Origin: Trigonopsis variabilis
Taxonomy: Eukaryota > Ascomycota > Trigonopsidomycetes > Trigonopsidales > Trigonopsidaceae
Length of the DNA: 64,000 nt
Direction of reading: 5' to 3'
Assembly: GCA_003707065.3 (NCBI GenBank)
Contig: PPXM03000001.1
Coordinates: 1,612,001 to 1,676,000 of the forward strand
Part shown: positions 13,350-57,325 of the stretch, piece after piece
How the letters are laid out: each line of letters opens with the position of its first letter
How positions within the stretch are numbered: position 1 is the stretch's first letter
Translations under genes and position numbers: made by a program
The notes under the pieces: generated by a model
Told to the model about the DNA's origin: nothing
Databases searched by the model: none
What the model saw: only the letters and a program-made list of their open reading frames with translations

Positions 13350-14541
13350 ATGGATCCTCCGCAGAGGGAACTTGCCGGTGTTGAGGCGACGACACCATTG
13401 GTTGGAAATACCCCATTTAAAGCATACGATGGGGTTAATGAAAGAACGAGCCAGCCATATTCAAGGGAGCAGCAGCCCAAGTTGCAATGGTCTGGAGGAT
13501 CAGGATGCGAACCTATGGCCCAGGATAGTGCAACAGAGGAGCATGAGGAACTACGGAGTGGTGATAAACCAGGGGAAGTTATAAATAAAGAGGAACTGCC
13601 GTGGAAAGAAGATCCAAGTCTGCCTGTTTATAAGCCTCGATTGATCCAACAACCTAACGCGAGTCAGGGATCTATATACATTTATTCCCCGGATGGAACT
13701 AGACATTTAGATCTCCTGAATTGTCCTGTACAAGATTTACTTATAATGATGGCCAGTCTCCTTGAAAAGATTATTCGTTCTAATGATGCTTTCCACAGCA
13801 CCTATCACGTGGGCGCGTTGGGCGGTCTAAGTCGAGGACACAATCACGTGGACAGAGACCTATCTGCATCGGCCATCAAAGATCACGGCCATGGTCAAGG
13901 TGGGAACCCTAATAAAATCATTTTAAAACGAACATCCTTTGAGCGGTCGTTGACTGCTAATGTCCTTGCGTTTCACGGCCGAAATGTCCCAGCCATAACA
14001 TTACACCAATACTTTCAACGAATAATCCGCTATTGTCCTGCTACTAACGAAGTCTTTCTTTCCTTACTCATATATTTTGATCGCATTGCCCAAAAAGCAA
14101 ATAACGTCAATCTTCGAAGAAAGCATTCCACGCCTCCTCCTTCGTCAGAAAGCCCCAACCAAGGGGAAGAAGAGCTGATTCCATTTGTAATGGATAGCTA
14201 TAATATTCACCGGCTCGTTATTGCCGGTCTAACCGTGTCTTCAAAGTTTTTTAGTGACGTTTTTTATAAAAACTCTCGTTACGCAAAGGTGAGCAAGTTG
14301 TTGACGACGCGGTTCTAACAATACTTAGGTTGGAGGATTGCCTCTTGAAGAGCTCAATCATCTAGAATTGCAGTTTTTGGAGTTGAGTGATTTCGAATTA
14401 GCAATCTCTCTGGAAGAGCTGCAACGGTATGGAGATCTACTACTACGGTTCTGGGAACAAGAAACCAAACTCGCAGGTATACCGATCTCTGGAGCCAGCG
14501 ATGTACCTAAAACAGGCGATCTCCCAGTTCAATATTGTTAG
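13350..14541 (+). CDS. Pho80/Pcl-type cyclin
   Basis: Two exons, 13350-14288 and 14329-14541, split by a 40-nt intron (GTGAGCAA ... CTAACAATACTTAG); 383 residues. The first ~195 residues are variable and hydrophilic. From about 195 to 350 lies a Pho80-like cyclin box: the HQYFQRIIRYCP region, FLSLLIYFDRIA, then NIHRLVIAGLTVSSKFFSDVFYKNSRYAKVGG and LNHLELQFLELSDFELAI, the last joined across the intron. Such cyclins bind Pho85-class kinases and act in phosphate, glycogen or cell-cycle signalling. Which Pho85 cyclin it corresponds to cannot be decided here. Confidence 0.88.
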
Positions 14542-15061
14542 GTATCCGTTTAGTTGTCTAAACAGAAGTTTTTATGGGTTTTGTCTAATAGAGAGTTTTG
14601 TGTGCGTTTTCTTTTTTCATGACTTTGAAGGACTATTTATATTTTGATCTCGGCCTTGCAAAACTCCTTGATCCGGCGTTTCTGTGTATTTAATGGTGTA
14701 CCCATCAACCGGAGCGGCCCCAGCTCTGTCTTTTTGTCTACCCCCATGTTGCATACTTTTAAGTCGACAAGTCTAATGTCTAAATATAAACCTAATGGTT
14801 GATATAAAAATATTACGTGGTAGCGCTCACTGACAATGCCAGCGTTCTTGGTATCTTGCTCTCCATTCGTAATGCGCCGAACATCCTTGAAATCGCATCC
14901 ATGACTTCTTGCTACGTACAATCACCTTGACAAGCATAATCCAACATACAACTCATATACACAGTGATCTTGCACATTGACAGCGCTCACTGGGCACCTT
15001 TTCTTCGCACCCACCTCAACGATAATGCACAACCCACCAAATTTTTTGAATGTAGGTGTTT
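14542..15061. other. Intergenic region
   Basis: Between the cyclin and RPS28 3' ends. A 94-codon minus-strand open frame (14637-14921) is present but has no recognisable family, no intron that would improve it, and lies in the terminator region of both genes; I do not call it a gene. Confidence 0.45.
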
Positions 15062-15470
15062 TTAACGTAAGCGACGAGCCTCGCGTTCGGATTCGAGCAA
15101 GCAGAGAATGTCATTCTCACGGACGGGTCCCTTGACGTTTCGAATAATGCTTCGGCTTTGATCATCCATGAATTGGACTCGGACCTGGGTCACAGAACCA
15201 CGGGAGCCAGTTCGGCCAAGGACCTTAATCACTCGAGCAAGTTTAACAGGAGTCTTATTATCCTGTTTGTTAGTTTATTCTCTTCCATATTATCTGCTAT
15301 TTGCTCGGTTCTCTCTCCCATACAGATATTTCGCGAATCCCACCGATCTCGAGAGCATGGAGGTTTACTCTTGTCGATCCTTTTCCTCATCAAATATAAA
15401 TAATGTGTCGAGAAAGCGATATGAACGAATAGTTGTCGATTGAACGCGAGCTTCTTGCACGACTTACCAT
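15062..15470 (-). CDS. RPS28: 40S ribosomal protein eS28
   Basis: Exon 1 contributes only the start codon (15470-15468), directly followed by GTAAGTC. Exon 2 (15262-15062) supplies the remaining 66 residues, from [20 protein letters not shown] through the conserved [20 protein letters not shown] to ARRLR. The total of 67 residues equals yeast Rps28. eS28 is an OB-fold protein near the mRNA exit channel of the 40S subunit. The 205-nt intron ends ACTAACAAACAG and is several times longer than nearly all others here, as is common for ribosomal protein genes. Because exon 1 is a bare ATG, no ATG-initiated frame exists for this gene and ORF calling misses it. Confidence 0.95.
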
Positions 15471-17539
15471 TTTATTTGCCAAACAGGTGTAGAGTCAAGC
15501 TATGGAAAGTGTGGTATCAAAAGCGTCGGCTAGTTGCAGGGTTTACAGACACAGTCTCACATCACGTGTTTAGAATACCTTGCCCCATAGCAACGAGCGC
15601 TCGTGAGAGCAGCTACGGGACGTAAGCAACCACAGTAACCAGCTTTTATGTGGCTCTTTCATAGCATCATATCACTTATTCGTAGCCTGTTTTCTGCGCA
15701 GGATTTGTTGTGGAGCTTTCGGCTATGTAGTTCGGCCTTCTGTGTCACTAAGTTAGTGATAACATGGCCCAGATAAGGCTAATACTTAACAAGTCTACAA
15801 TGGAAGTAATAGCAATCAGAGAGATGGGAGAAAAAGTATAGATTCCAAGAAGAGAAGAATCTCTCGGATATTCCCCTCACTTGAAGTCCTCTCCAATATT
15901 ATCTACTCAAGATAGTCTTCAGAGCACAGAAATATTCTCTTCAATATGAGACAATCATTACCAATAATACCCATTAAAGCCCATAAACGAGCAAGTTGCT
16001 TTGAAATTGATTGAAAATGTGATTCGCGTCCAAGTAATTTTTTTTTTATCGACCATTTCTGAAGATCTACGTGTCTATTCCCTAAGATAGTCTTGAATTA
16101 CGACCAGAGCTAAGATAACTCGGACAAGAGGTATGATTTAGGTCCAAGACTCTATTATTGAGAGATTTATCCAAGAGATTATTAAGACTTCAATCAGTTT
16201 TGCTGAGGGTTGTGAAGGCCAGTGACGTAGAGATATGTGAATCGGTAACTATAGTTCCTATTTGGGAATTAATTGGTATCCACTTTCAATCTTCTAAGGA
16301 ATACTTTTACTTTCTGTTGCTTACATGGTGGAAAAACCCCACAAGAAAGTGTCATCATCTAGACGTATTATGGTTGCTCTCATGGACTTGAGCTCACCTT
16401 GGAGTACTTACACTCGAAGGCAATAAACAGACAGTGTATTTTCCTTTCCTAGATACCTCATCATATTGCTTGTGCAATGTATGATCGCTTCTTCAAGCGC
16501 CGTTATACAACGTTCTACGCCGTCAGTGCGATATCCAACATTTTCTTACATTCAAGATCAGACATATGTCATGTAAGTCTCGGTGCTTGTTTTCAGATAC
16601 ATAGCTCTTTCTAGAGTACATTCAATACCTTTTCAAAAGAGTCAGAGCCACGATACGCCATACCAATGTATCATCACTTGTTATAACGTGATTCAGTCAG
16701 GAGTAATGGATGTTCCATTTATTCAAAGCAGACATACCTGGCGGGCATGTTTGTGGATAAGGCCGACTTAGTCACAGTATATAGAAAAGCCAGATAACAT
16801 TGAGTTCTTGATTGATGTAGTCTTTGATGCTGAAGCAAGTCCCTCTTTAGGTGTCTGAACAGATCAACTGTCGCCAAACAGAACTTGGTATGGCGATGTC
16901 GGGATTTTTAATTGCCTGCAGGAATGGGAAGCTTCTGACAGATTAGAATATTTATCTCGAATGTGCAGAACTCGACTCGAGACATTTTTCTCAATACAAT
17001 ATAGAGGTCTCCGCGTAAGGATCAACCATTGGAAGGACCGGAACATTTTTCCTGAGCTCTGTTCTCATCATATCATTAGCTTGGCTAGAATCCAAGCTCT
17101 CTCATACATCTCCAGCGATATTCATAACGTTTTCTAACCTACCCTTTAATTGCCGAAACCTCGAAAATTTCCAGCAATATTAGGATATTCTAGAAAACTA
17201 GCCATATGGATAGCTTACAGGTCTTAAAACAAAGTCCTAGTGAGACTATTGTGAGCGACAGTAGTTCACAAAGGCATCTCAAGTGACATCTTTGATGGAA
17301 CAACAGAAGCTGTTATATTGTTATTTATAGCTTTTTAGTCTGCCTAGAATTCTAAAACTCGTGAAGCAGAAAGCAGTATCCTGTGCCATCTAACAAACTC
17401 ATCTCAATCTGCCCTGCTTACGTCGCGGTCACTAGCTCGGGAGTTACCTTACTCACGTGCCTCCAATCACGTGCCTATTGTAACGCAATGAAAAATTCCG
17501 ATTAGCTTGATTCTCGGTGAGTAACCAAACTAATTGAAG
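15471..17539. other. Gene-poor 2-kb region between RPS28 and HIS1
   Basis: AT-rich, no open frame over about 80 codons, and no tRNA, rRNA, transposon or tandem repeat recognisable. The left end should hold the RPS28 promoter and the right end the HIS1 promoter, including the paired CACGTG sites. A non-coding RNA cannot be excluded. Confidence 0.45.
17454..17473. promoter_or_regulatory. Paired CACGTG E-boxes upstream of HIS1
   Basis: CACGTG occurs at 17454-17459 and again at 17468-17473, 14 bp apart start to start and about 70 bp before the HIS1 ATG, both followed by CC. A bHLH factor (Cbf1 or Pho4 type) is the natural candidate; this is inference from the consensus. Confidence 0.4.
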
Positions 17540-18604
17540 ATGGATTTGGTCAACCATTTGAACGATAGATTACTATTTGCTGTTCCCAAGAGTAAGTTTC
17601 GCCTGGAATGAAGTGTTGTGCAAGAGCTGTTGAACGTTCGGCCAAGACCGAGCTAATAGTGACGGTGCTTTTCATAACACATGGCTTGTGGACTTTACTG
17701 ACTGTATTCCTTAGAGGGACGGCTTCACGAGCGATGTATTGAACTGCTTCAGGGCTCCGATATCCGGTTTCATCGTCACAACCGTCTTGATATAGCTCTC
17801 TCGACATCTTTACCAATTGCGTTGATTTTCCTTCCGGCCAGCGATATTCCTCGATTTGTGGGCGAGGGTCGAGTTAGCCTTGGTATAACTGGGCACGATC
17901 AAGTAGTCGAATCAGGTGCAGATGTTGAACAACTCTTTGATCTCGGATTTGGTAACTGCAAGATGCAGATCCAAGTTCCCCAGGACGGTCCGTTTAAGGA
18001 TCCTCAAGATTTGGTCGGCAAAAACATTGTTACATCGTTTACTTCTCTCACAGAGGAATATTTTGCTAAGCTCGAGGGTGTTGATCTAAGTAAAGGAGAG
18101 AAGATAGCCACAAAGATCAAGTTTGTTAGCGGCAGCGTTGAAGCTGCCTGTGCTTTGGGAGTTGCTGATGGAGTGGTCGATTTAGTTGGTAAGATAAATG
18201 ATCTCATGTTGATGTGTTTCTAACCTACAGAATCCGGTGAGACTATGCGAGCCGCTGGACTCAAAGCCATTGGAACCATCCTTAGCACCTCGGCCGTGCT
18301 GATTGCTTCCAAGAGACCTACTCATCCTGATCTAGTCAAGTTGATCACTTCCCGAGTCGAAGGCTTCTTGACTGCGCAAAAGTACGTCTTGTGCAACTAT
18401 AATGCCCCTCGGGCACAGCTGCCTGCGCTACTCAAGATCACTCCCGGACGACGAGCCGCTACTGTGTCTGCGTTGGATGAAGAAGGATGGATTGCAGTGT
18501 CAGCTATGGTTGAAGCTAAAGATGTTGCAGAGAAGATGGATCAACTCAAGACATTGGGTGCTGAAGATATTATCGTCTTCAGTATAAAGAACTGTCGAGC
18601 GTGA
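17540..18604 (+). CDS. HIS1: ATP phosphoribosyltransferase, first step of histidine synthesis
   Basis: Three exons, 17540-17591, 17715-18188 and 18231-18604; 299 residues (yeast His1 297). Exon 1 encodes MDLVNHLNDRLLFAVPK and the join gives PKKGRLHERCIELLQGSDI, the family N terminus. The catalytic domain continues with FLPASDIPRFVGEGRVSLGI and a PRPP-binding region around EAACALGVADGVVDLVESGE, the latter completed across the second intron. The C-terminal ACT-like regulatory domain, which binds histidine for feedback inhibition, covers about 215-299 and includes ITPGRRAATVSAL. The reaction joins ATP and PRPP to phosphoribosyl-ATP. The first intron (123 nt) is longer than most here; the second (42 nt) ends CTAACCTACAG. 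Confidence 0.95.
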
Positions 18605-30050: not shown

Positions 30051-30852
30051 ATGGCAAGAAAGTACTATGCAGTTCGAGTAGGCCATCGTAAAGGAATCTA
30101 TGACAACTGGCCTGAAACCCAGGCTCAAGTCAGTCGATACCCTGGCGCTCAACACAAATCGTTTCAATCTTATGATGATGCTGTGGCGTATATGAGCGAA
30201 GGGGCTGGACCTTCGAGGAGATCGTCTTCGAGGAGATCGTCTGGTTCGGTCGCTGATGTCTCTTACTTTGCCGGGGTTGAATGTGCTTTAAAAGGTGAGT
30301 GATTCGGTAAAGTTTCATCTAACTGTAGAACGTATTTCGGGTTCGGTAGGGTCGGATGGAGTCTCTGAAACCTCTTCTACCATTGTAACCACTGTCTATA
30401 CTGATGGAGCCTGCAGTTCTAATGGTAAATTTGGTGCCCGTGCTGGGGTTGGGGTTTTTTTTGGTCCTCAGTCACCAAGAAATATTTCTGAAAGGCTTCC
30501 AGGGCCCGTTCAAACCAATCAACGAGCCGAATTGACAGCCATTCTTCGGGCCCTAGAGGTTTCTCGTTCGGGGGAAAGTTTACGAATCCTGACAGATTCT
30601 CAATACGCCATTAAATGCTGCACAGTATGGAGCGAGAAATGGAAGCAAAATGGCTGGAGAAACGCTACCAATCATGCTGTGCAGAATGCGGATCTCGTGA
30701 AGGACATCCTTGCACAGATCGAGCGCAAACGTCAGGCTGGTGCTTCGGTTGAGTTGGATTACGTCCCAGGCCATTCTGGCCATGCGTCTAATGAGGCTGC
30801 AGATAGTCTAGCTGTCCAGGGCACAAGACTAGCTAACGTATATACAGACTAG
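30051..30852 (+). CDS. RNH1: Ribonuclease H1
   Basis: Two exons, 30051-30294 and 30329-30852, with a 34-nt intron ending TCTAACTGTAG; 255 residues. Residues 1-50 form the RNA:DNA hybrid-binding domain (YYAVRVGHRKGIYDNWPE, then KSFQSYDDAVAYM). A Ser/Arg linker is followed by the RNase H fold with the four acidic catalytic residues D107 (YTDGAC), E149 (QRAEL), D171 (LTDSQYA) and D240 (NEAAD), plus the GHSGH loop. It removes RNA from RNA:DNA hybrids, including R-loops. An in-frame upstream extension exists but MARKYY is the natural start; the extension is not clearly a mitochondrial presequence. The context is ordinary host sequence, with no retroelement parts nearby. Confidence 0.94.
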
Positions 30853-37028: not shown

Positions 37029-37294
37029 CTAAGAGAACGTAAAATAACAGTTTCAAGACTAGGAAGAATAAGCCAAAGACGAGATCTAGCGCGAGACTTG
37101 TGTCTGAGCCAGCCGACTGGGGTCGGGAGCCTCGAGACAGATCACGAGCCGGAGCCTTGCTGTCAATTCTTCCCTAGCATGAAACGATTATAGATGGACG
37201 TGTTAGTCGAAAGCACCTCAACAACGATCGGACTTACCATAGTATAGTGAATATCCAAGGCTTGAGGAGCGAGCATGGAAGGACAAATTGCCAT

Positions 37295-39642
37295 GGATCG
37301 CAAAGTAGCTATTCAGTATGAGACCAAACAGTAGTGATATCGCAGCGACTGGTTAGCGGATGCGGAAACAGGCTGCGGTGAGAGTCGATTTGAAGGACCC
37401 AAAGTCGAGAGGGCAAGATATAAATCAAAAGGTCGAGTGAAAAAATGATATAAAGCTCCGAATATACCGAGGAAAGAAGAAGGATGAGGAGAATGTCAAG
37501 GATGAAAAGAAAAAGTGGAGACAAGCAGACAGATAAATGATCTAGACTTGAGGAGCTGTTGGGATGATTGACCACCGAAAAGTGGGACGACCTGCGGCAC
37601 ACTTCTGGCAGCACTGGCCAGATCTACTCGCGGGCCGTAATGGGTTATACCCAAACCGGAAGTCAGTAACGTTTCATCCGAGGCGATTAATTCCACGGAG
37701 AAAGCACAATGGGCAGTCTTAGCGAGCCTACACCTACATATTCCCACTCACTTTCTCAATGCCACCAACCAAGGCGTTTTTGGATGGCCCATGCTCGAGT
37801 TAACGCTGTGCCTGAGGCCAAGACGCCGGTCACTTCGAGCTGGTCAGATGACTGGACGCGTTGTGACACGTCAATAGTGGTCGAAAGCTCGCTTGTTAAA
37901 GACATTTCCGCTCGGCAGTGACGACAGATGCGGAGAACAAATATATAAAAATCGCTTTTTTTCAACCTGGTCCACCGCAATTCCCGGTACTCGGCCGATC
38001 TTCAAGAATAAACGACATTCAAGGAGGGGCCCAAGGGGGCCGTCTAAATTATCTTGAATACTCATCATGTGCGCAGGTTACCAAACGAGGAATCGAAATG
38101 ATAACCTAATTGGGAAATCATCTCGAACCCCACCTCAATGCCATCGTATCCATGCCTGATAGGTTTTCCCTCATATTCCGTTTCGGGAAACGGCGACCTT
38201 ATATCCTGGAGTGCCCCACTGTTGCAAAAATTTTCTCCCACGTTATGCAAAGAATAGAATTCATTCTCGCGCTACATAATTAAGGTTCTTAAGGGAAATT
38301 AACTTTAGATGAATGTGGGACTCAAGTCATTATCTGTCATTGTGTTCGTTGTACCCGAGATTAGCCGACGCGGTTCGACCCGGTGTCGCTTTTAAAGGCA
38401 CGTTGGCAGGCCTGTTTGCGTCGTTAATTAACTCGATGCCCAAAGGACGTGTTTGCAGCAGAAAGCGGCACTGATCTAGAGCTGGCGAGGGAGAAGGAAA
38501 ATTCAAAAAAGACACCGAAATCGGTTATTAATTATGACTATCGCGAAAATATCAATTAGTCTTCGCCCTTCTCCACCGCGCATCTGGTAGTCATTCCCAA
38601 GCGTAGCAGCCCCCAAAAAATTTATATTACATAAGCTACCAAACGAGGAGAGGCTGCTGGCTCGGGCTCAGATCTTCCAGGCCATCCGAGAGACTCGTTC
38701 AAGAGATTAGTTTGACCTAACTTCTTTCAGTTTTCGTGCTTTTCTTGTTTTAAATCAACATAAAAACAGTATATTCCACCTAATCCGCGACGAGTCATCT
38801 GCGCATCGCACGTTATCAGATAGAAGTATTACATAAGATTTGCAGTAACAGCAAGCCAAATGTCATACTCGTCTCCTTTCCATATGTATACGCGAGCACA
38901 GATACTGTGATTTATTCATATTAATAATTGGCTTAATCTTTTCTTTTGCATTCCACTTGTCTTTGGATGATCCTTACTTACTTATTTCGTCTGTCTTTTC
39001 AGCCGCGGCCTGCTATTCCGGACCTCGGTTTAGTTTCCTTCCGAGAAAGCTATTTTTCATAATGACCTCAATGGCTTCAATGGCCTGATTGTTATTGTGG
39101 GTTGCCTAATCTGACTGATTCGGCCTGAGTGATTTACAGACGTTGGATCATTCTTTCTGAAAACCCTTTAGGCTTGTCACAAGGCGCTCGTCCGTCTAGC
39201 TTACGTCTTCTACATAGCCGGCGGATCACGACTCTCTCCCTCGTCTCCTCCGTCTATCTTCCTAGCCGTCAGATTCGCCTCTCACATAAGACGGGATTTG
39301 CAAGGAGCCAGTCCCCTCTGGCAGGGGCCAATTCTCTTTTATGATGATGTCAACATCTACCGTATTGTCATGTCCTCAACCAGATGGCAGGACGTGCTGG
39401 GCTCATCGCTACAACGCTACCGTGACTGACAACGACTAGAGCCTTCCAGACGTGCAGATCTCACCAAGTACGTCTGGATGACATTACCACATAAGACCAT
39501 TTGGGACGGTTTGGATTACTAGAGGTGCGCTCAAGATACTGCTTTATGACCATCGCTACGAGAATATAGAATACCCACAAACCTATGATAACAATGCAAC
39601 CAAACCCCGATAAAAAGTAACCTTCACCCCCCAGATTGATAT
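37295..39642. other. Gene-poor 2.3-kb region between GAC1-like gene and MET30
   Basis: Only short frames occur. The left part should hold the GAC1 promoter. A GGTTCGACCCGG stretch near 38372 resembles a tRNA B box, but the flanks do not fold into a T-arm. No repeat or mobile element was recognised; a long non-coding RNA remains possible. Confidence 0.4.
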
Positions 39643-41562
39643 CTAGATAAAAGAATACATACGGATTGTTCCGTTGGCGCCATTACTAACGATGCGCGAA
39701 TCCGTCATGGCAACACAGATAACCGGCTCGGCCGCTCCAACAATGGTTTGAATGCACTTTCCAGAATGCAACTCCCACACTTTAACAGATTGGTCATGTG
39801 CACATGATATGATGCGAAAGGTATCGACTGCAATGTCCCAAACCCCCTCGACGTGGCCAAATAGCGTCTGAACACACTCCCCGGTGCTTACTCGCCAGAT
39901 CTTGATGGTATTATCAGTCGAGCACGTCAACACATACGTAGGCCGCTTTGAAAGATTCTCTTCGTACTCCTTGCGACGTCGTTGGCTCTCTTCGTCAGTC
40001 AACAGCTCCCGCTCGGCAACGGTCAAGCCCAAATCACTAGACCCCTCTCCAGTCGACTGCGGTTCTTCGCTGCTGGCGCTGGTCCCAGACTTGCCAGCGA
40101 TTTCGTGGATATGGTCCTCTGAAAAGGTGATGGGAATCGCCCGTTGAACAGGCCCATTGTGCCCATTGGCGTCTCGCCCAAAGATCCGTACACACTTGCG
40201 GTCAGTCAGGTCCCACATGCGAATGGTGAAATCATCGCTGGCAGAGTAAAGAGTATTGGATGGAGTGTGGAGACGGACCGAGTTCACCCACTCAGTGTGC
40301 CCTCGTAGCGTGTAGAAGGTCTGGTTCTTGAAATTCCACACCTTGATGGTCTTGTCGGCCGAGCCCGATACAATGACGTTGTCGTCAAAGTCCAGCGAGC
40401 AAATGATATCGTTGTGAGCTCTCAGAGTGGAAATACAGTTTCCTGTATGATAATCCCAAATAAGCATGACTCCATCAGTCGTGCCAGTGATCAGTTTACT
40501 GGCATCGAACTTTAACGCCCGGACACCGGCAGTGTGGCCGGTCAAAGTACGCAGTAATTCCCCACTCTCGACGTCCCAGACTTTGACAGTGGTGTCAAAC
40601 GAGCCGCTGATCAGAATTGACCCATCAATCTGCAGACAGGTGACACCTTGGGTGTGCCCTTTGAACTCTCGGAGGGTGTAACGACCGTGCCGCCAATTCT
40701 GTTCAACGTTCCATCGTTCTCGATACACTTCTTTCCAGGGGCGGGTTTTTCGAGATGGCTTGAATGCAATGTCGGACGAGGGAGCAGGAGTAGCCGAAGA
40801 TGAAGAAGCAGGTGTAGTGGTGGAAAGAATGGGGGTGGCATTGCCAGAAGGTCTATCTGGGGTCATACATACTCGTTTGGTAGACCCTTGGTAATGTTCT
40901 TGTTCAGATGATCGCTTCTTCGCTTGTTGTCCTAGAAATTGTATTCGATTCTCCATATCGACCTTGGTCGACCGTAGCCGCTTGCGTTCAAGCAAAGGCA
41001 GGCCCCATCCGCACTTTGTACACTTTCGATCGATGTGCTGCTCGCACATTCGATGCCAAACGACATCATCATCGGCAAGTTCTCTCCATCGACGAGACAC
41101 TTGAGCAGCCTGGCAGAGGGAGGACGTATCAAGGGACGAGAGGATCTTGAACGCAATTTCAATCGGAAGCGCAGTAATAAAGTCGATTCTGATAAGATCC
41201 TGAACTAGCGAGGATACAAAAGATAGCTGAGGAAGACAACACTGAGCCAAGATTCCTTGTATTATAACGTTCCGCTGAATAGGAGGCGACGAGGAAAACG
41301 CCTGCCAAATATTGGATATACTTTGCTGATCGGACTTGGGAAAGACCTCCAGCTTGCTTTGCAAGTTCCCAAGCAGAGTCTCGTCGGCGCTTCGCTTGCA
41401 ATGAGTGTTTGGGTCGTGTCGATAGCAAAACTTGCGGGGCTCGGACCGCTGGACCAGATTCAGGTCGGAGTCTTTGACCTTGATAGGTTCTTCCTTGTCG
41501 CCGTCATGGGGATTCCCACTCTGCGAAATTGATCGAAGGTTCTCGACAATCTTTTCACTCAT
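39643..41562 (-). CDS. MET30: Met30/SconB F-box WD40 protein
   Basis: Single exon; the first in-frame ATG at 41562 gives 639 residues. The F-box lies at about 124-170 (DFITALPIEIAFKILSSLDT), followed by a CxxC-containing linker (KCTKCGWGLPLLERKRLR) typical of Met30/SconB. A WD40 propeller then runs from about 300 to the C terminus, with repeats such as GHTQGVTCLQIDGSILISGS, GHTAGVRALKFD and GHVEGVWDIAVDTFRIIS. It should be the substrate receptor of an SCF ubiquitin ligase controlling Met4-class activators, hence sulfur assimilation and heavy-metal response. A conserved upstream N-terminal block (CYRHDPNTHCKR) matches the family. Confidence 0.93.
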   Translation of the reverse strand: MSEKIVENLRSISQSGNPHDGDKEEPIKVKDSDLNLVQRSEPRKFCYRHDPNTHCKRSADETLLGNLQSKLEVFPKSDQQSISNIWQAFSSSPPIQRNVIIQGILAQCCLPQLSFVSSLVQDLIRIDFITALPIEIAFKILSSLDTSSLCQAAQVSRRWRELADDDVVWHRMCEQHIDRKCTKCGWGLPLLERKRLRSTKVDMENRIQFLGQQAKKRSSEQEHYQGSTKRVCMTPDRPSGNATPILSTTTPASSSSATPAPSSDIAFKPSRKTRPWKEVYRERWNVEQNWRHGRYTLREFKGHTQGVTCLQIDGSILISGSFDTTVKVWDVESGELLRTLTGHTAGVRALKFDASKLITGTTDGVMLIWDYHTGNCISTLRAHNDIICSLDFDDNVIVSGSADKTIKVWNFKNQTFYTLRGHTEWVNSVRLHTPSNTLYSASDDFTIRMWDLTDRKCVRIFGRDANGHNGPVQRAIPITFSEDHIHEIAGKSGTSASSEEPQSTGEGSSDLGLTVAERELLTDEESQRRRKEYEENLSKRPTYVLTCSTDNTIKIWRVSTGECVQTLFGHVEGVWDIAVDTFRIISCAHDQSVKVWELHSGKCIQTIVGAAEPVICVAMTDSRIVSNGANGTIRMYSFI

Positions 41563-42427: not shown

Positions 42428-44045
42428 ATGCTTGGGACTTTAGTGGACTCTGTTTATTACCACGTATCTCGTGCCGGCCTCTTCAGCTATTTGCTGGTTT
42501 TGTACACTGCCGTGGCTCTGGGATGGCTGATTACGTATGAAGCAAAGAGACATCGAGGACGAATTCGAGGGTTTTCGGGACCGACTGGCTTGCCTATAGT
42601 TGGGAATATCCATCAGATACGATCCAATGCAGCCGAAACCTACAGACGGTGGTCTCAAACGTACGGCCCTGTCTTCCAGATCCAGCTTGGAAATGTGCCT
42701 GTTCTAATTGTCAATTCTGCAAAGGCTGCCCATCATCTGTTCATTTCGAACTTGGGCGCTACCAATTCTCGCCCTGAATTCTATACCTTTCACAAAGTGA
42801 TATCCTCGACAGCCGGCTTTACCATTGGAACTTCTCCCTATAGCGAATCGTTGAAACGACGACGGAAATGCGCTGCCTCGTCGGTCAACCGGCCTGCCGT
42901 TCTGTCTTATATGCCCATTATTGATTTGGAGACGTTTGAGTTTATAAAGAATGCATTTACTGAAGGTCAGCAAGGTCGATTGTTGGTCGATCCCCTCTTT
43001 CTGGTCCAACGTTTGAGCGTGAACTTGAGCCTGACGTTAAACTGGGGTACCCGGTTCGATCTTAGCAATGACAAAGAGTTGTTTCATGAAATCATTGAAG
43101 TCGAAGATTATATAAGCAGGTAATTCCCACTAGACTAGGGGAGATGGCTGACTACTTAGATCGCGCAGTACCACGGGAAATATGCAAGACTATATCCCTT
43201 TACTAAGGCTCCTACCGGGTGTAAACAAGAAAGCCGAGGAAATGAGACATAAACGAGACAAATATATCAGTGCATTGAACGCAGGCCTTGAGCAGCGCAT
43301 TAGAGACGGCACCCATCGTCCTTGTATCCAAGCGAACGTGTTGCTTGACCCAGAGTCCAAGCTGACTCCTACAGAGCTCAATTCAATATCCTTGACTCTG
43401 TTGGCTGGCGGACTTGATACCATCAGTGCCGTTGTGTTCTGGTCGGTGGCACTGTTGGCCACTCGGCGCGATATCCAAGAAAAGGCCTTGATCGAGTTGT
43501 CCCAGTATTATGACCTGCGTAATCCTCTGGTCGACATCTCAGACGATACCCGCTGTCCCTATATCATGGCCTTGGTGAAGGAATGTCTCCGCTACTTTAC
43601 CGTCCTCCGTCTCTCGCTACCGAGAAGGACTACCAAGGACGTTGTCTACGAAAACAAACTCATACCTGCAGGCACTGTGATATTCCTGAACGCTTGGGCG
43701 TGTAATAACGACCCTGAACTATGGACTGATCCTCACGTCTTCCGCCCTGAGCGCTTCTTGGAACACCCTGATGCCCCTATCTTTAGCTTTGGTCAAGGCG
43801 CGCGAATGTGTGTAGGGTCTTTGTTGGCCTACTGCGAGCTGCATCATTTGTTTGCCAGGCTCATTGCCTGTTTTGATATCCAGGCTCCTCGACCTATCAA
43901 CTGCCATCCCGTTCTGGGAATGGATGATCCCCGAGGATTGGTGAGCTTGTGCGCTCCTTACAAGGTCCGCTTCCTACCTCGCGACCTGTGCAGTCTGGAG
44001 CGAGCGCTGATCACCCACGGCGAGAATCTGGCCCATCCTCTCTAA
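42428..44045 (+). CDS. CYP504-type cytochrome P450 (phenylacetate hydroxylase family)
   Basis: Two exons, 42428-43119 and 43160-44045, with a 40-nt intron ending GGCTGACTACTTAG; 525 residues. There is an N-terminal membrane anchor at about 17-36, then a proline-rich hinge (FSGPTGLPIVGNIHQI). The oxygen-binding I-helix reads AGGLDTIS, the ExxR helix KECLRYF, and the heme-binding loop FSFGQGARMCVG with C448. CYP504 hallmarks include LSVNLSLTLNWGTRFD, SSTAGFTIGTSPYSESLKRR and, across the intron, SRSTTGNMQDYIPLLRLLPG. Aspergillus relatives (phacA, phacB) hydroxylate phenylacetate or 3-hydroxyphenylacetate on the way to homogentisate, at the ER. Which of the two activities applies is not decided by sequence reading. 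No other homogentisate-pathway gene lies nearby. Confidence 0.88.
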
Positions 44046-50716: not shown

Positions 50717-51838
50717 TCACTCTATATGACTAAACTCCATTTTGTTATGGTGCTGGCTTCCGCCCATGAGATCGCCGGCGTCTACCTGACTGCGCATTTC
50801 GGAAATGGGATGGATCTGGTCATTGTGGCCACTGGCCTGGCTGGACGAGCTGCCTGGTTGGGCGGGCTGGGCAGGAGGCTCGATGTAGTTGTATTGGAGG
50901 CCGTCGTCGGACGAGGCCTTGCTGAGCTGGTAGGCCTTATCGAGCTCGCCCTGGTCCTGGCGGCCAATCTTCGCAGACCAGTAGCGGTAGTAGCCCTGGA
51001 AGCCAAAGTAGGGCTGGTTGACGGGGGAGATCTCGCCGGTATAGCAGAAGACGTCATAGATCAGGCCTCCAGTCAGGGTGCCGAGGAAAGAGGCCACGGG
51101 AGCGACCCAGAAGTAGTAGTCGCCTGCTCGCCACACGTCCAGGCCGTAGCCCGCCATCCAGGTGAACAGACGGGGGAAGAGGTCACGGGCCATGTTGATG
51201 GCGTAGCCGGTTTCCCAGCCCAAGCCGGCACCGATCGAAAAGATCAAAAACATGATGATGAGAGGGCCCAAGCCGCCAGCAGGGTTGTTGTTTTCGTCGC
51301 CAATGGCGAAGATAAGCAGCTGGAGTACGACTGAGCAGAGGAACTCGGAGAAGAACTGGCCGCGTTTGGTCAAAAAGTCCTGGGGATAGGTGCAGAAAAT
51401 GGACGCGGTTTCGGTGTCGCCAAATACGGTTCTGATGCCCCTGCCGCCCTCGTAAACGTCGATCGCAGACCGATAGTTGCCATACACAAGTGCAGCGCCG
51501 GTGAGACCACCCAGACACTGGGCAATCATGTATGGAACGAATTTTTTCCAAGGGAATTTACGGAAGACGCAGTTTGCAAGGGTGACGGCCGGGTTGAGGT
51601 GGCCTCCGGAAATGCCACCAGAGACGTAGACGCCAAACATGACGCCAGTACCCCAGAGCCAGGAGATGGACTGGTAATTGCCAGCTGCGCCTTTGGATAG
51701 AGTGACTTGGGCGACGACACCGTCGCCAATAAGCACCAGAATACAGGTGCCAAGGAACTCTGCCAGTGGCTCTCGATACCGCCGGCGGAAACGGACCATG
51801 AAAGGTTCATCGGTTTTCGGAACAAGCTCGAATTTCAT
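50717..51838 (-). CDS. Aquaglyceroporin (MIP family, Fps1/GlpF-like)
   Basis: Single exon, 373 residues: six membrane helices between about 25 and 285, and an 85-100-residue cytosolic C-terminal tail rich in Ser/Gln/Pro. The first pore motif is HLNPAVTLA (N82-P83-A84). The second is INMARDLFPRL (N215-M216-A217-R218-D219): Pro is replaced by Met, while the Arg of the selectivity filter and the following Asp of glycerol-conducting channels are kept. The wide extracellular loop before it (GWETGY) is also of glycerol-channel type. It should conduct glycerol across the plasma membrane. The gene lies back-to-back with glycerol kinase over 1.5 kb of shared upstream DNA, which fits glycerol uptake. 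Confidence 0.92.
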   Translation of the reverse strand: MKFELVPKTDEPFMVRFRRRYREPLAEFLGTCILVLIGDGVVAQVTLSKGAAGNYQSISWLWGTGVMFGVYVSGGISGGHLNPAVTLANCVFRKFPWKKFVPYMIAQCLGGLTGAALVYGNYRSAIDVYEGGRGIRTVFGDTETASIFCTYPQDFLTKRGQFFSEFLCSVVLQLLIFAIGDENNNPAGGLGPLIIMFLIFSIGAGLGWETGYAINMARDLFPRLFTWMAGYGLDVWRAGDYYFWVAPVASFLGTLTGGLIYDVFCYTGEISPVNQPYFGFQGYYRYWSAKIGRQDQGELDKAYQLSKASSDDGLQYNYIEPPAQPAQPGSSSSQASGHNDQIHPISEMRSQVDAGDLMGGSQHHNKMEFSHIE

Positions 51839-53334
51839 TGCAAGCTCTAGACGATTGTAGTAGGATCAGGAGGGACAGTCAACGATGTGCTGGCACGACT
51901 AGATAAAGGGATAAAGACAGGAGACGTGTCAGGCAAGGTTGATGGATATGGACAAGATTTTTGCTGAGGCGCAATAACCCCACCATGGGACGTGCCGGGA
52001 TATTTGGTGCCCGGCGCCGTGCCACCTGCCTGATTAGGAAAGTGGTCAGGCGGAGAAGCGACTCGAGGGTCCTGGATCTACAATTGGAGATTATTCAGCG
52101 CCGGTTTTCGGGATATTACTCTACAATTTGATCCTGGAACTGGGGTGTGTGATGCATGTCCACCAGTTTTGCTTCCTCCGGGTGGTTTGGTTACGTCCGA
52201 AACAACGGCCCGACGCCAGCAAAGTGGCATGCCCAGCCTTGATCTGCCGTCGGAGTAACTCCCAGATGAGCCATGGACGCACTGCCCGGGCCCGGCAGCG
52301 CGGAAAGACTGTAAAAGGACAAACAAAAGAGATCCGGCGCTAAGATGAAGGGGATTGTTTGGCTACGATGAATGGAGAGCCAAAAAAGGCGGGGAAGACT
52401 CGTGAGCGCTACAGGGCTTCGGGTATGCGTGCCGATCGAGAGTGACCAAAAGAGGACACGAAAAGAACGGATGAGGCGAGCCTGGGGTAGAGATGGCCAG
52501 ATAGCGCAGGTCCGACGAGCACTGGAACCAAACGTGCCAAGCTAAGTCGTAGGAGCGGACAAGCAGCGGTGAGATTCGTCAGATAGTTTTGGCATTTGCG
52601 ACGTGACAGAGGGGAAGTTCCAGGTAGATAAGACTTGTAAGCTGTCCACGCAAGCTTCTGACATCATGCTTTATATGGTAATTGCTGGCTTTTCCGAGGC
52701 GCTTCTTACTAATTGTCGTTGTCCTCGGGTTTAAGGGAGATGGGTTAAAAGCAGTCGTAGTCTATTCTACTCGAAGCATCGACCACCACCGCTCGAGGCT
52801 TGGTTGTGCGCGAGGCTTGGTTCTAGGGTACGGGACCTGAAACTTACTTAGGACTGAGTCTGCCAGCGCCAGAACTAGGATCAGAATGCGGATCAGAACT
52901 TGAATCCCAGGATAGATCCAGGATAGAACCACTGCTTGGCTAGAACAAGCAGTGCGCTCGCCTTCGGAAAAGAAACTACAAAGCTACGGAAAAACCCATG
53001 CCGGCACAAAGAACCAAAGAGGCTTATTGTCGGGTACGGCTAAGGAGATAATGTTCAACTCGGGCAAGGTCTGGGGAAAGACGGCTGAGAGTAAAGTTAA
53101 AAGTGAGCCGGTGCGTCGTCATTGGTACGGCGCCCCGGGGAAACGTAGCAGCCACTTTCCCAAACGGGCTAGCCGGGACTGGAGCAGCCTATGACGAGCC
53201 GTAGCCGGGGTCGGAAGGGAAAGCTAACTTAGCCCCGCATTGGTCCGCAAGTTTGGCATGGATAGATTTATGCCCCCCACTCGAACCAAGCGATATATAA
53301 ACCCTCGGCCCCTCGAACCAGTCGCCTAGCAATC
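51839..53334. promoter_or_regulatory. Shared divergent upstream region of aquaglyceroporin and GUT1
   Basis: About 1.5 kb between two divergent start codons, with no coding signal; rather GC-rich, with several G-rich blocks (for example ACTGGGGTGTGTG near 52139). It probably holds the control elements of both glycerol genes. I could not assign specific factor sites with confidence. Confidence 0.5.
53294..53300 (+). promoter_or_regulatory. TATA box of GUT1
   Basis: TATATAA 35 bp before the GUT1 ATG, in an otherwise GC-rich stretch. If used, the transcript would have a very short 5' leader, unless initiation at distant sites applies as in budding yeast. Confidence 0.5.
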
Positions 53335-54916
53335 ATGACTTTCACTCCTTTGGTAGGCGCCATCGATCAAGGCACCACGTCGACGCGTTTCATGGTGTTT
53401 GACGACAAGGGCAAGCCCATCGCGTCGCACCAAATCGAATTCACCCAGATCTACCCCAAGCCAGGGTGAGTAACTTTGCGTGCAAAGGCTAATCGTCAGT
53501 TGGGTCGAGCACGATCCCCAGGAACTCGTGGAATCGGCCATTGAATGCATGAACCATGTCGGCCGCGACCTACGTGCCATGAACATCCTCCACCACCAGA
53601 TTCGTGCCATTGGCATCACCAATCAGCGTGAGACGACCGTGCTGTGGGACGTAGACACTGGCATGCCTCTCTACAACGCCATTGTCTGGTCGGATGCCCG
53701 TACTGCTGGAACTGTTGCCCAGCTGCAGGCCAAAGAGGGATCAGACAAGGTGCACGAGCTTTGCGGATTGCCGTTGTCGACCTACTTTGCCGCCGTCAAG
53801 GTGCGCTGGCTGCTCGACAACGTCAAGGACGTCAAGGACTCGTACGATCGCGGCAAGCTGTGCTTTGGCACCATCGACTCGTGGCTCCTGTACAACTTGT
53901 CGGGCGGTCTGAACGGCGGAAAACACATCACTGACGTGTCCAACGCCTCGCGATCGATGTTTATGAACATTCGCACCCGCGAGTACGACGACCGGCTGAT
54001 CAAGTTCTTTGGCGTCGAGAAGCTCATCCTCCCCCAGATCGTCTCGTCGTCCGAGGTCTACTGCCGCCTGGGAACCGGTCCTCTGGCTGGTATTCCCATT
54101 GCTGGCTGTCTGGGTGACCAGGCTGCCGCTCTGATCGGCCAGAAGGCCTACTACGCCGGCTCTGCCAAAAACACCTACGGCACCGGCTGCTTCTTGCTCT
54201 ACAATACCGGCCACGACGCCATTCTGTCTGAAAACGGGCTGCTGACCACCATTGCGTTCCAGGGCAAGGGCCAGGAGCCCATCTATGCGCTCGAAGGCTC
54301 GATTGCCGTTGCGGGATCGGCCATCAAGTGGGCACGAGACAACCTGGAACTGATCTCGTCGGCCCAGGAAATCGGCGAGCTGGCTGGATCGGTCAAAGAC
54401 ACCGCTGGCGTGGTCTTTGTCACCGCTCTCAGCGGCCTGTTTGCCCCTTACTGGCGCGACGACGCTCGTGGTACCATTCTTGGTCTCACCCAGTTCACCA
54501 AGCGTGCCCACATCTGCCGTGCCATTATCGAGGCCATCTGCTTCCAGACCAAGGCCATTCTCATGGCCATGGAAAAGGACTCGAAAAAGCCTTTCCGCCG
54601 CCTGCAAGTCGACGGTGGAGTCACCAACTCGGAGGAGGCGATGCAGATCCAGTCCGACATCCTCGGCATCGAGGTCGAGCGACCTGCCATGCGGGAAACT
54701 ACTGCGCTGGGCTCAGCCATTGCTGCAGGCCTTGCTGTGGGCGTGTGGAAGGACTTTGACGATCTCCAGGACGTCAACAGCGAGGGCAAGACCACCTTTT
54801 CGCCCCAGATCTCAGATAAACGCCGGGCCAAGATGTTCAGACTATGGAATCGCGGTATAGAGCGAGCAGTGGGCTGGGTCCAGGAGGAAGACACAGAGGA
54901 CGAAGATGATGAATAA
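53335..54916 (+). CDS. GUT1: Glycerol kinase
   Basis: Two exons, 53335-53465 and 53500-54916, with a 34-nt intron (GTGAGTAA ... GGCTAATCGTCAG); 515 residues. FGGY-family features: the N-terminal phosphate loop [28 protein letters not shown], the sugar/glycerol-binding region [29 protein letters not shown], and the C-terminal [20 protein letters not shown] with [13 protein letters not shown]. The enzyme makes glycerol 3-phosphate from glycerol and ATP in the cytosol. The C-terminal tail is acidic ([10 protein letters not shown]). Third codon positions are strongly C/G-biased compared with genes in the left part of the window, which leaves long meaningless open frames on the opposite strand. 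Its neighbours are the aquaglyceroporin (divergent) and GUT2 (same direction). Confidence 0.97.
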
Positions 54917-55423
54917 ATGATGACTGTCACGTGTACATACAAAGTATACCTGTAATCGCAACGTAGGAAACAAGTACTACTAAGGATAGCTGTAATGCAA
55001 CGGAGGGTTCCAGTGGCACAGCACCACATAAGCACCACAAAAGCACCAGAAATAAGTATCGCCGCTGTACCACTGCCGCCATTGTAAATTAACAACTCGC
55101 GCCACTTTGAGTCATGCTTGTGACGTAACTTCGGAAACAACAAATGATCTTGCTCCGATCCCGGAGAGATCTGCCCCACTTTCCTATTCGAGGCATATCC
55201 GACTCTCGATGCTGAGCGCAGGCAGAGCTCAGTCAAACGAAAACGCAGCGCTGAGGGCGGTAGAGGTCCATTTTCCGCTCTACACCGACTAGACTGCTCG
55301 AGTGCAAGATGGCGATGGCCAGTACCGAGCAAGGGTCGACAGCAGGGGTGGATCTTGGCAGGGTTACCCTGTCCGGGTCGTCAGGAGAAAAAGTGAGCCT
55401 ATGCACCAAACCTCATCCTCGAC
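54917..55423. other. Intergenic region between GUT1 and GUT2
   Basis: About 0.5 kb, containing the GUT1 terminator and GUT2 promoter; a CACGTG site lies at about 54929. The genes are therefore separately transcribed in the usual fungal manner. Confidence 0.5.
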
Positions 55424-57325
55424 ATGTTTGCAAGTGGAACAAAGATGTGGAGCCGACTGAGCAGTCGGCGAGCATTGGCTATTGCAGGATGTGCCGCTAT
55501 TGGCACTTACACGCTGATGAATCACTACATTCCCTACGCCCAGGCGGACGAGCTCAAGACCAAGAAGATCCCGGGCCCGTTCAAGCCCCTACCGAAAAGA
55601 GAAGAGTTCATCAACCGACTGCGGTCAGGCGAAGAGTTTGACATGGTCATTATCGGCGGAGGCGCCACTGGAACGGGCGTGGCCGTCGACGCTGCCAGCC
55701 GTGGGCTCAAGGTGTGCCTTGTCGAGCGCGACGACTTTGCCTGTGGAACGTCGTCTCGATCGACCAAGCTGGTCCATGGAGGCGTGCGCTACCTCGAAAA
55801 GGCCATCTTCAATCTGGACTACTCGCAGTACAAGCTAGTCAAAGAGGCGTTGCATGAGCGCAAGTACTTTCTGGATATAGCCCCCCACCTTAGTTTTGCG
55901 TTACCAATCATCATCCCGGTGTATAAACTCTGGCAGGTTCCATATTTCTGGGCTGGCACCAAATGCTACGACATCTTGTCGGGATCGCAGTCCATTGGAG
56001 GCTCGTTTTGGATGAGCCGGAAAGACGTGATTGAGAACTTCCCGTTGATGAACCATGACAACCTCAAAGGCGCCCTGACTTACTATGATGGATCCCACAA
56101 CGACTCGCGCATGAACGTGGCGTTGGCCACCACCGCTGCCGACCATGGAGCCGTGGTGCTGAACCACTTTGAGGTCACCAGCCTGGAGAAGAACGGCCAG
56201 GGCCGCTTGATTGGCTTGACTGGCGTCGATAAGGAGTCTGCCGACGGAAACGAGACGTTCAACATCAAGGCAAAGTCCATTGTCAATGCTACCGGTCCCT
56301 TCTGCGACGCCATCCGCAAGATGGACGATCCCAAGACTCGAGACATCGTTGCTCCTTCCTCTGGTGTCCATGTGATCCTGCCCTCTTACTTTGGCTCGTC
56401 CAAATACGGACTGATCGACCCCAAGACGTCTGACGGCCGGGTCATTTTCTTCCTGCCCTGGCAGGGCAAGACCATTGCCGGCACCACGGACTCTCCTTGC
56501 AAGATTGACGCGAATCCCATTCCCACCGAGGCCGACATCGACTGGATCCTCAACGAGGTAAACAACTACGTTGGTGGCACCATCAAGGCCACCCGCAACG
56601 ACGTCCAGGCTGCCTGGGCCGGCATCCGACCTCTGGTGCGGGACCCCAAGGCCAAAAACACCGAATCGCTGGTGCGAAACCACTTGATTGACATCTCTGA
56701 GAGCGGGCTGCTGACTATTTCTGGCGGAAAGTGGACGACGTACCGAGAAATGGCTGAGGAGACCGTTGACGAAGCCATCAAGGATAACGGTCTCAAAGCC
56801 GGTCCCTGCATCACCAAGACGCTAAAACTGACTGGTGCTGATGAATATTACGACTTGCTTTACATCAAACTCGCTCAGGAGACTGGAATCGACCCTGAGG
56901 TCGCTCGCCACCTCGCTCACAACTACGGCGACCGTGCTTTTGAAGTGGTCGATCTCTCTGAGCCCTCCAAAAACACTCGATGGCCTCTCCGGGGCTCGAG
57001 GCTAGTCGAAACACTCCCATTCATCGACGGAGAAGTTCGATTCGCCGCCAGACACGAGTACGCCACGACCACGGTCGACGTCATTGCTAGACGCATGCGC
57101 CTGGCCTTTTTGAACTCGAGCGCTGCCCTAGAGGTCTTGCCGCGAGTCATTGATATCCTTGCCCAGGAACTCAAATGGGACTCGAAGCGCCAGCAGCAGG
57201 AGTGGGACGAAACCGTCAAGTACTTGTGGACCATGGGCTTGCCTCCTCGCTCGTGGACCCGTGCACAGGTCGAAAACGGAGAGTTTGTTCGATACGAGGT
57301 CTCTTCCAACCCTGAGCTGCTTTAA
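55424..57325 (+). CDS. GUT2: Mitochondrial FAD-dependent glycerol-3-phosphate dehydrogenase
   Basis: Single exon, 633 residues (yeast Gut2 649). Residues 1-45 form a mitochondrial presequence with Arg/Ser (MWSRLSSRRALA) and a short hydrophobic anchor (IAGCAAIGTYTLM). The FAD-binding Rossmann motif is IIGGGATGTG with G78, G80 and G83, followed by ERDDFACGTSSRSTKLVHGG, a hallmark of the family. The core continues with FFLPWQGKTIAGTTDSP and SGGKWTTYREMA, and a C-terminal helical cap domain (about 500-620) is present. It oxidises glycerol 3-phosphate to dihydroxyacetone phosphate on the outer face of the inner membrane and passes electrons to ubiquinone, completing glycerol use and the glycerol-phosphate shuttle. 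Confidence 0.97.
   Translation: MFASGTKMWSRLSSRRALAIAGCAAIGTYTLMNHYIPYAQADELKTKKIPGPFKPLPKREEFINRLRSGEEFDMVIIGGGATGTGVAVDAASRGLKVCLVERDDFACGTSSRSTKLVHGGVRYLEKAIFNLDYSQYKLVKEALHERKYFLDIAPHLSFALPIIIPVYKLWQVPYFWAGTKCYDILSGSQSIGGSFWMSRKDVIENFPLMNHDNLKGALTYYDGSHNDSRMNVALATTAADHGAVVLNHFEVTSLEKNGQGRLIGLTGVDKESADGNETFNIKAKSIVNATGPFCDAIRKMDDPKTRDIVAPSSGVHVILPSYFGSSKYGLIDPKTSDGRVIFFLPWQGKTIAGTTDSPCKIDANPIPTEADIDWILNEVNNYVGGTIKATRNDVQAAWAGIRPLVRDPKAKNTESLVRNHLIDISESGLLTISGGKWTTYREMAEETVDEAIKDNGLKAGPCITKTLKLTGADEYYDLLYIKLAQETGIDPEVARHLAHNYGDRAFEVVDLSEPSKNTRWPLRGSRLVETLPFIDGEVRFAARHEYATTTVDVIARRMRLAFLNSSAALEVLPRVIDILAQELKWDSKRQQQEWDETVKYLWTMGLPPRSWTRAQVENGEFVRYEVSSNPELL

What the first reader, a model, noticed from the sequence alone, without database searches (positions are those of the whole stretch)
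50717..57325. A fungal glycerol-use gene cluster: channel, kinase and dehydrogenase side by side
Three consecutive genes encode the whole glycerol route from outside the cell to dihydroxyacetone phosphate: aquaglyceroporin (minus), glycerol kinase (plus) and mitochondrial FAD glycerol-3-phosphate dehydrogenase (plus). In bacteria the same three functions form glpF-glpK-glpD operons. In S. cerevisiae FPS1, GUT1 and GUT2 lie on different chromosomes. Here the proteins are clearly eukaryotic (intron in GUT1, presequence and anchor in GUT2, long cytosolic tail on the channel), so the cluster looks like convergent assembly rather than transfer of an operon. The 1.5-kb divergent region between channel and kinase could act as a shared control region.
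Basis: partly seen in the sequence, partly recalled or inferred. Interest (0 to 1): 0.78.

Follow-up and report, generated by a model that had tools for sequence, protein, structure and literature searches.

The report
Yeast glycerol-use genes sit together
Three neighbouring genes in a yeast-like fungus together bring glycerol into the cell and turn it into fuel; two of the three have already been reported close together in another yeast, while the third gene, and a short DNA word found in front of all three, look new here.

Summary
Consecutive genes encode a major-intrinsic-protein channel (50717-51838, minus), a glycerol kinase (53335-53465 joined to 53500-54916, plus, 34-nt intron) and an FAD glycerol-3-phosphate dehydrogenase (55424-57325, plus). 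Kinase and channel are eukaryotic in kind and the layout is not a bacterial glp operon, so operon transfer is unlikely. The core is not newly seen: Liu et al. 2013 reported that the glycerol-induced channel and kinase genes of Pachysolen tannophilus lie close together, and locus numbers put the pair side by side in Komagataella phaffii and probably Yarrowia lipolytica. In Yarrowia both are strongly glycerol-induced, while GUT2 bears another chromosome's letter. GUT2 joining the pair seems new. A 9-base word, CCACTTTCC, lies in the same orientation at -207, -183 and -248 from the three start codons; 0 of 1771 control gene trios from the window share a sense 9-mer within 300 bp. It was found post hoc, and four further copies lie inside ORFs. 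The divergent region is also rich in repeated 7-mers. The channel is not Fps1-like: filter W/G/Y/R and second motif NMA fit alpha aquaglyceroporins. Verdict: a variant of a known yeast gene pair, of moderate interest, with a testable regulatory prediction.

The parts
50717..51838 (-). aquaglyceroporin gene (MIP family, 373 aa), filter W/G/Y/R, first motif NPA, second motif NMA
   Evidence: Pfam MIP; alignment with E. coli GlpF; PDB ranking aquaporin 7, 3, 10, then GlpF
51839..53334 (.). 1496-bp divergent region between channel and kinase start codons, rich in repeated 7-mers
52037..52045 (-). CCACTTTCC, starting 207 bp before the channel ATG, sense orientation (candidate shared control word)
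53152..53160 (+). CCACTTTCC, starting 183 bp before the kinase ATG, sense orientation (candidate shared control word)
53294..53299 (+). TATATA at -41 from the kinase ATG (possible TATA box)
   Evidence: TATA-like words are no commoner than expected in the region
53335..53465 (+). glycerol kinase (GUT1) exon 1
   Evidence: spliced frame gives 515 aa, residues 6-511 of which align with the solved kinase 6zq4
53466..53499 (+). 34-nt intron, GTGAGT ... GCTAAT CGT CAG
   Evidence: removal gives KPG^WVEHDP, continuous with relatives
53500..54916 (+). glycerol kinase (GUT1) exon 2
   Evidence: Pfam FGGY_N and FGGY_C
55176..55184 (+). CCACTTTCC, starting 248 bp before the dehydrogenase ATG, sense orientation (candidate shared control word)
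55424..57325 (+). FAD-dependent glycerol-3-phosphate dehydrogenase (GUT2), 633 aa
   Evidence: Pfam DAO and DAO_C; the four PDB matches are glycerol-3-phosphate dehydrogenases and oxidases (bacterial, as recalled)

Best explanation
This is a fungal glycerol-assimilation gene cluster. An old channel-kinase pair, also seen in other glycerol-using yeasts, has been joined by the gene of the next pathway step. The channel lets glycerol in, the kinase traps it as glycerol-3-phosphate, and the mitochondrial dehydrogenase oxidises that to dihydroxyacetone phosphate and feeds electrons to the respiratory chain. The genes are probably induced together by glycerol from separate promoters, possibly through a common activator that binds CCACTTTCC about 180-250 bp before each start codon. 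Shown here: gene identities, order, spacing and the shared word. Inferred: transport and enzyme activities, glycerol induction in this species, and any role of the word.
For: Gene identities. Three steps of one pathway in a row. Close location and co-induction in Pachysolen: PtFPS2 19.6-fold, PtGUT1 17.6-fold, PtGUT2 4.2-fold on glycerol. In Yarrowia, channel and kinase bear close locus numbers and both are strongly induced by glycerol, GUT2 more weakly. In Komagataella, PAS_chr4_0784 is a channel needed for glycerol accumulation and PAS_chr4_0783 a kinase needed for growth on glycerol. Shared word: 0 of 1771 control trios (23 ORFs of the window) share a sense 9-mer within 250, 300 or 400 bp, 10 of 20000 Markov shuffles do within 300 bp; up to one mismatch, 5 copies in the 2003 bp of these two gaps (3 exact) against 5 in 17055 bp of other noncoding DNA, none exact. 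The longer word CCACTTTCCYAWWCRR, written from these three sites, fits nothing else in the window exactly. Repeated 7-mers are in excess in the divergent region (23 against 9.2, 0 of 1000 shuffles).
Against: No expression data for this organism. No fungal genome collection was on hand, so the three-gene order is seen once. The word was found after looking at several word lengths and comparisons. Allowing either strand within 600, 600 and 507 bp, 1.1% of shuffles share some 9-mer, and so do 1.55% of 2000 random trios of other noncoding stretches; with 500 bp, 1 of 1771 control trios does. At 8 bases, 14 of 1771 control trios share one within 300 bp and 1 reaches the target's two. CCACTTTCC occurs 7 times in the window against 0.48 expected, and 4 of these lie inside long ORFs, so it is commoner than chance outside promoters too. 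Pairwise counts of shared 8-mers and 9-mers between the three upstream regions are not above chance, p 0.11 to 0.31. The top repeated words of the divergent region are mostly not found upstream of GUT2.
Confidence: 0.62

Rival explanations
1. Only the channel-kinase pair is a functional unit, inherited from an older yeast ancestor; GUT2 came to lie beside it by an ordinary rearrangement and is regulated on its own.
For: The pair recurs in Pachysolen and by locus number in Komagataella and Yarrowia, with GUT2 bearing the letter of another chromosome in Yarrowia; GUT2 is more weakly induced in both Yarrowia and Pachysolen. GUT2 has its own 507-bp upstream region, which holds few of the words repeated in the divergent region.
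Against: GUT2 is the next step of the same pathway, which makes a chance neighbour unlikely (about 3e-4 for one named neighbour among 6000 assumed genes), and its upstream region shares the 9-mer in the same orientation.
Confidence: 0.27
2. The cluster descends from a bacterial glpF-glpK-glpD operon acquired whole.
For: Bacteria do group these genes: of 80 bacterial loci with a GlpD relative, 40 have a GlpK relative in the flanks held (up to 6 kb) and 4 of these also a channel relative. The PDB matches of the dehydrogenase include no eukaryotic one (organisms recalled).
Against: Kinase groups with 6zq4 (Chaetomium, recalled), 54% identity against at most 48% for 38 bacterial rows, support 100/100, with a warning about long branches. 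Channel scores about 190 bits against aquaporins 7 and 3 and about 147 against GlpF. Intron, divergent channel gene and gaps of 0.5 and 1.5 kb. With no eukaryotic dehydrogenase among the PDB matches, cannot favour bacteria.
Confidence: 0.03
3. The neighbourhood is a coincidence without function.
For: The three-gene order is seen in one genome; many pathways could have been noticed.
Against: Probability about 6e-8 for this exact trio under random order with 6000 assumed genes, and the pair recurs in another yeast.
Confidence: 0.06

Closest known systems
PtFPS2-PtGUT1 pair of Pachysolen tannophilus (Liu et al. 2013, PMC3610204; Discussion read in full, other passages seen)
   Same: A short glycerol channel gene and the glycerol kinase gene lie close together and are the two most glycerol-induced genes of the set tested.
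   Different: The parts seen do not place GUT2 beside the pair, nor mention a shared sequence word; orientation not seen.
AGP1 (PAS_chr4_0784) and glycerol kinase (PAS_chr4_0783) of Komagataella phaffii (PMC5696491, PMC5147967; passages seen)
   Same: Consecutive locus numbers; channel needed for glycerol accumulation, kinase needed for growth on glycerol.
   Different: Orientation and GUT2 position not seen; from memory GUT2 is on another chromosome.
YALI0F00462g/YALI1_F00616g and YALI0F00484g/YALI1_F00654g of Yarrowia lipolytica (PMC10935855, PMC5009880, PMC6893183; passages seen)
   Same: Channel and kinase with close locus numbers on one chromosome, both strongly glycerol-induced.
   Different: GUT2 is YALI1_B18499g in one paper and YALI0B02948g in another, both lettered B, not F. 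That the YALI0 and YALI1 channel numbers are one gene is my inference.
bacterial glp operons (E. coli glpF-glpK, MG1655)
   Same: Same functions grouped (40 of 80 GlpD loci have GlpK nearby).
   Different: Co-directional, with 22 bp between glpF and glpK in E. coli; here divergent, wide gaps, intron.

Membership tests
Fps1-like aquaglyceroporin | filter W / L,I,M,N / T,C,A,S / R (25 of 26 in PMC4236510 Table 1) | tested here: not met
   Window channel reads W/G/Y/R by alignment with GlpF (GlpF filter positions recalled)
[quoted passage not shown] cerevisiae) | tested here: not met
   373 aa in all, about 20 before and 100 after the core
alpha-cluster fungal aquaglyceroporin | filter W/G/Y,W,F/R (46 of 48) with a substituted NPA motif (95.8%), the second one | tested here: met
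   W/G/Y/R and NMA; the beta cluster and 8 of 42 Yfl054-like channels share the filter, and no tree was made, so this rests on motifs
glycerol kinase (FGGY) | FGGY_N and FGGY_C domains, near full-length match to a solved glycerol kinase | tested here: met
   (6zq4, 621 bits, query residues 6-511)
mitochondrial FAD glycerol-3-phosphate dehydrogenase | DAO and DAO_C domains | tested here: met
mitochondrial FAD glycerol-3-phosphate dehydrogenase | mitochondrial presequence and membrane anchor | tested here: inconclusive
   basic N-terminus (4 K/R, 0 D/E in 30 residues), weak hydrophobic stretch
bacterial glp operon | genes in one direction with short gaps | tested here: not met
   channel divergent; gaps 1496 and 507 bp
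yeast channel-kinase glycerol pair | aquaglyceroporin gene next to glycerol kinase gene | tested here: met
   'located closely together' for Pachysolen
yeast channel-kinase glycerol pair | both genes induced on glycerol | not testable with these tools
   no expression data for this organism

The most novel reading that the evidence does not exclude
A eukaryotic three-gene glycerol regulon, assembled from an ancient channel-kinase pair plus GUT2 and driven by a dedicated activator that binds CCACTTTCC (perhaps CCACTTTCCYAWWCRR) at a similar place and the same orientation before each gene; the same word, and its activator, should then be found before FPS/AGP1 and GUT1 in Yarrowia, Komagataella and Pachysolen.
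Probability: 0.25. Interest if true: 0.6.

Novelty: new variant of a known kind. Interest (0 to 1): 0.42.

Why it matters
Clusters of primary-metabolism genes in fungi are cases in which gene order evolves for function. Here a known two-gene neighbourhood of glycerol-using yeasts appears extended to the whole route into central metabolism. If the shared word is real, it offers a handle on glycerol induction in such yeasts; the Yarrowia RNA-seq paper says that the mechanisms behind the prioritised use of glycerol have not been elucidated (passage seen).

Tried and rejected
No whole genome is held for the window, so own-genome searches were not possible. One viral-contig scan for GUT2 relatives found nothing. 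The genome-contig scan kept 80 loci of 95 relatives, all from prokaryote records. No tRNA was found in the window.

Named motifs in the divergent region: AGGGG, CCN6CGG and CGGN11CCG are at chance against dinucleotide shuffles. SYGGGG has 10 copies against 4.5 (p 0.01, one of ten patterns tried, not corrected) and SYGGRG p 0.07. TTGGRG, CATGTG, CCAAT, TATA-like and GATA words were compared with other noncoding DNA only and are near expectation. The larger excesses partly reflect the higher G+C of this region (0.53 against 0.44). Five 7-mers picked from the data have p 0 to 0.008 each, but a 7-mer seen four times occurs in 40% of shuffles. The number of 7-mers seen three times or more is in excess: 23 against 9.2, 0 of 1000 shuffles, while three other noncoding stretches of the same length give 76, 39 and 104 of 300 shuffles as high. 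So the region may hold repeated control elements, but I do not claim a named repressor cluster.

Operon transfer, chance neighbourhood and Fps1 membership were considered and set aside, as given in the rivals and membership rows.

Papers: only the held open PubMed Central library was searched. For glycerol gene clusters or neighbouring glycerol genes in fungi or yeasts; by its titles, (six cluster phrases) listed 13 papers on bacteria, archaea or microbial communities. For locus numbers. No listed paper holds both YALI0 numbers or both PAS_chr4 numbers. PMC6893183 holds both YALI1 numbers but not the words adjacent, neighbo-, next to or located. In these searches I saw no paper describing the three-gene order; I did not open most listed papers and did not search for the word CCACTTTCC. 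Klein et al. 2016 (PMC5779717) is not held; their 2017 review was not looked up.

Full report
What is there. The three genes are real, adjacent and intact. The channel gene lies at 50717-51838 on the minus strand (373 aa; Pfam MIP, E 3.5e-49). The kinase starts at ATG 53335, runs to 53465, is interrupted by a 34-nt intron (GTGAGT...GCTAATCGTCAG) and continues from 53500 to 54916 (515 aa; FGGY_N, FGGY_C). The dehydrogenase lies at 55424-57325 (633 aa; DAO and DAO_C). The spliced kinase aligns from residue 6 to 511 with the solved kinase 6zq4 (Chaetomium thermophilum, organism recalled; 621 bits), ahead of the next solved kinase (520 bits). The gaps are 1496 and 507 bp. The divergent gap holds no ORF of 100 aa or more; two ORFs that overlap the second gap, and one opposite the channel, have no Pfam match.

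Neighbourhood. On the left are NPR2, an RRM protein and a phosphatidylserine decarboxylase; on the right SF3B1 as one 1175-aa open frame, and a CAP-Gly protein. Several long genes have unbroken frames, and the intron-like stretches found by pattern are short with the branch motif close to the acceptor, as the pattern required. I infer a yeast-like ascomycete; the species was not identified, and no fungal genome collection was available.

The channel. Aligned with E. coli GlpF, its selectivity filter reads W/G/Y/R (GlpF positions recalled) and its second NPA motif is NMA. In Table 1 of PMC4236510 (passages seen) Fps1-like channels have L/I/M/N and T/C/A/S at the second and third positions (25 of 26), while alpha-cluster channels have W/G/Y,W,F/R (46 of 48) with NPA substitution in 95.8%. 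So it is best called alpha-type. The beta cluster (20 of 24) and 8 of 42 Yfl054-like channels share the filter, so this is a motif-based call without a tree. It lacks the long N-terminal extension of S. cerevisiae Fps1. That fits the short uptake channels of Pachysolen (323 and 389 aa).

Origin. A tree of 41 kinases (window, 6zq4, E. coli, and 38 of the 40 bacterial GlpK found beside GlpD relatives; two partial ones were dropped) puts the window with 6zq4 at 100/100, with 54% identity against at most 48% for the 38 bacterial rows. The program warns that long branches meet. The channel scores about 190 bits against aquaporins 7 and 3 and about 147 against GlpF. No eukaryotic relative of the dehydrogenase was among the four PDB matches (organisms recalled), so its descent is untested. 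The divergent channel gene, the gaps and the intron do not look like an operon. In bacteria the association is common: 40 of 80 GlpD loci have GlpK and 4 have also a channel in the flanks held, a lower bound because many contigs end early.

What is already known. Liu et al. [quoted passage not shown] PtGUT2 rose 4.2-fold. In Komagataella phaffii the channel Agp1 is PAS_chr4_0784 and the glycerol kinase PAS_chr4_0783. In Yarrowia lipolytica the numbers are YALI0F00462g (channel) and YALI0F00484g (kinase), and in the other annotation YALI1_F00616g and YALI1_F00654g, both strongly induced by glycerol, with GUT2 as YALI1_B18499g and more weakly induced. Adjacency in these two species is read from numbers (a YALI0 step of 22 per gene is recalled), not from maps, and orientation was not seen. 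So the core pair is old and partly described; GUT2 beside it is the new element as far as I could see.

Shared word. I compared the upstream regions. Named motifs in the divergent region are mostly near chance or explained in part by its higher G+C; SYGGGG is mildly enriched (10 against 4.5, p 0.01 before correction). The region does hold more repeated 7-mers than expected (23 seen three times or more, 9.2 in shuffles, 0 of 1000 as high), unlike three other noncoding stretches, but the top ones are mostly absent before GUT2. One 9-mer, CCACTTTCC, occurs once before each of the three genes, always in the gene's own direction, starting 207, 183 and 248 bp before the ATG. No sense 9-mer is shared within 300 bp by any of 1771 trios of 23 other ORFs of the window (starts taken as the first ATG), and by 10 of 20000 Markov shuffles; with 500 bp one of 1771 control trios shares one, and at 8 bases 14 of 1771 do within 300 bp. 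Allowing one mismatch there are 5 copies in 2003 bp here (3 exact) and 5 in 17055 bp of other noncoding sequence (none exact). A 16-base version written from the three sites has no other exact match, which is partly circular. Against it: the search was post hoc; looser tests give 1.1% and 1.55%; pairwise word sharing is not above chance; and four more copies lie inside long ORFs, giving 7 in all where 0.48 are expected. I treat it as a good lead, not as shown.

Conclusion. Most likely this is a co-regulated glycerol-uptake cluster of a yeast: an old channel-kinase pair extended by GUT2.

Noticed in passing
window 1-64000: G+C rises along the window from 0.43-0.47 in the first 24 kb to 0.51-0.55 after 44 kb; the glycerol block lies in the richest part.
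   Followed up: no
window 53466-53499, 30295-30328, 12429-12473: Very short candidate introns (34-45 nt) with CTAAC/CTAAT close to the acceptor; only the one in the kinase was checked by translation.
   Followed up: partly
window 53099-53109 and 55389-55399: The 11-mer AAAAGTGAGCC occurs only twice in the window, once before the kinase and once just before the dehydrogenase ATG (0.04 expected); chosen after the fact.
   Followed up: partly
window 51839-53334: The divergent region holds 23 distinct 7-mers seen three times or more (9.2 in shuffles, 0 of 1000 as high), such as GAACCAA four times.
   Followed up: partly
window 14316-17701 and 37029-39645: Two long stretches (3386 and 2617 bp) without any open frame of 130 codons or more.
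   Followed up: no
window 42428-44042: Cytochrome P450 split over two open frames (42428-43120 and 43152-44042), probably joined by an intron or a shift.
   Followed up: no
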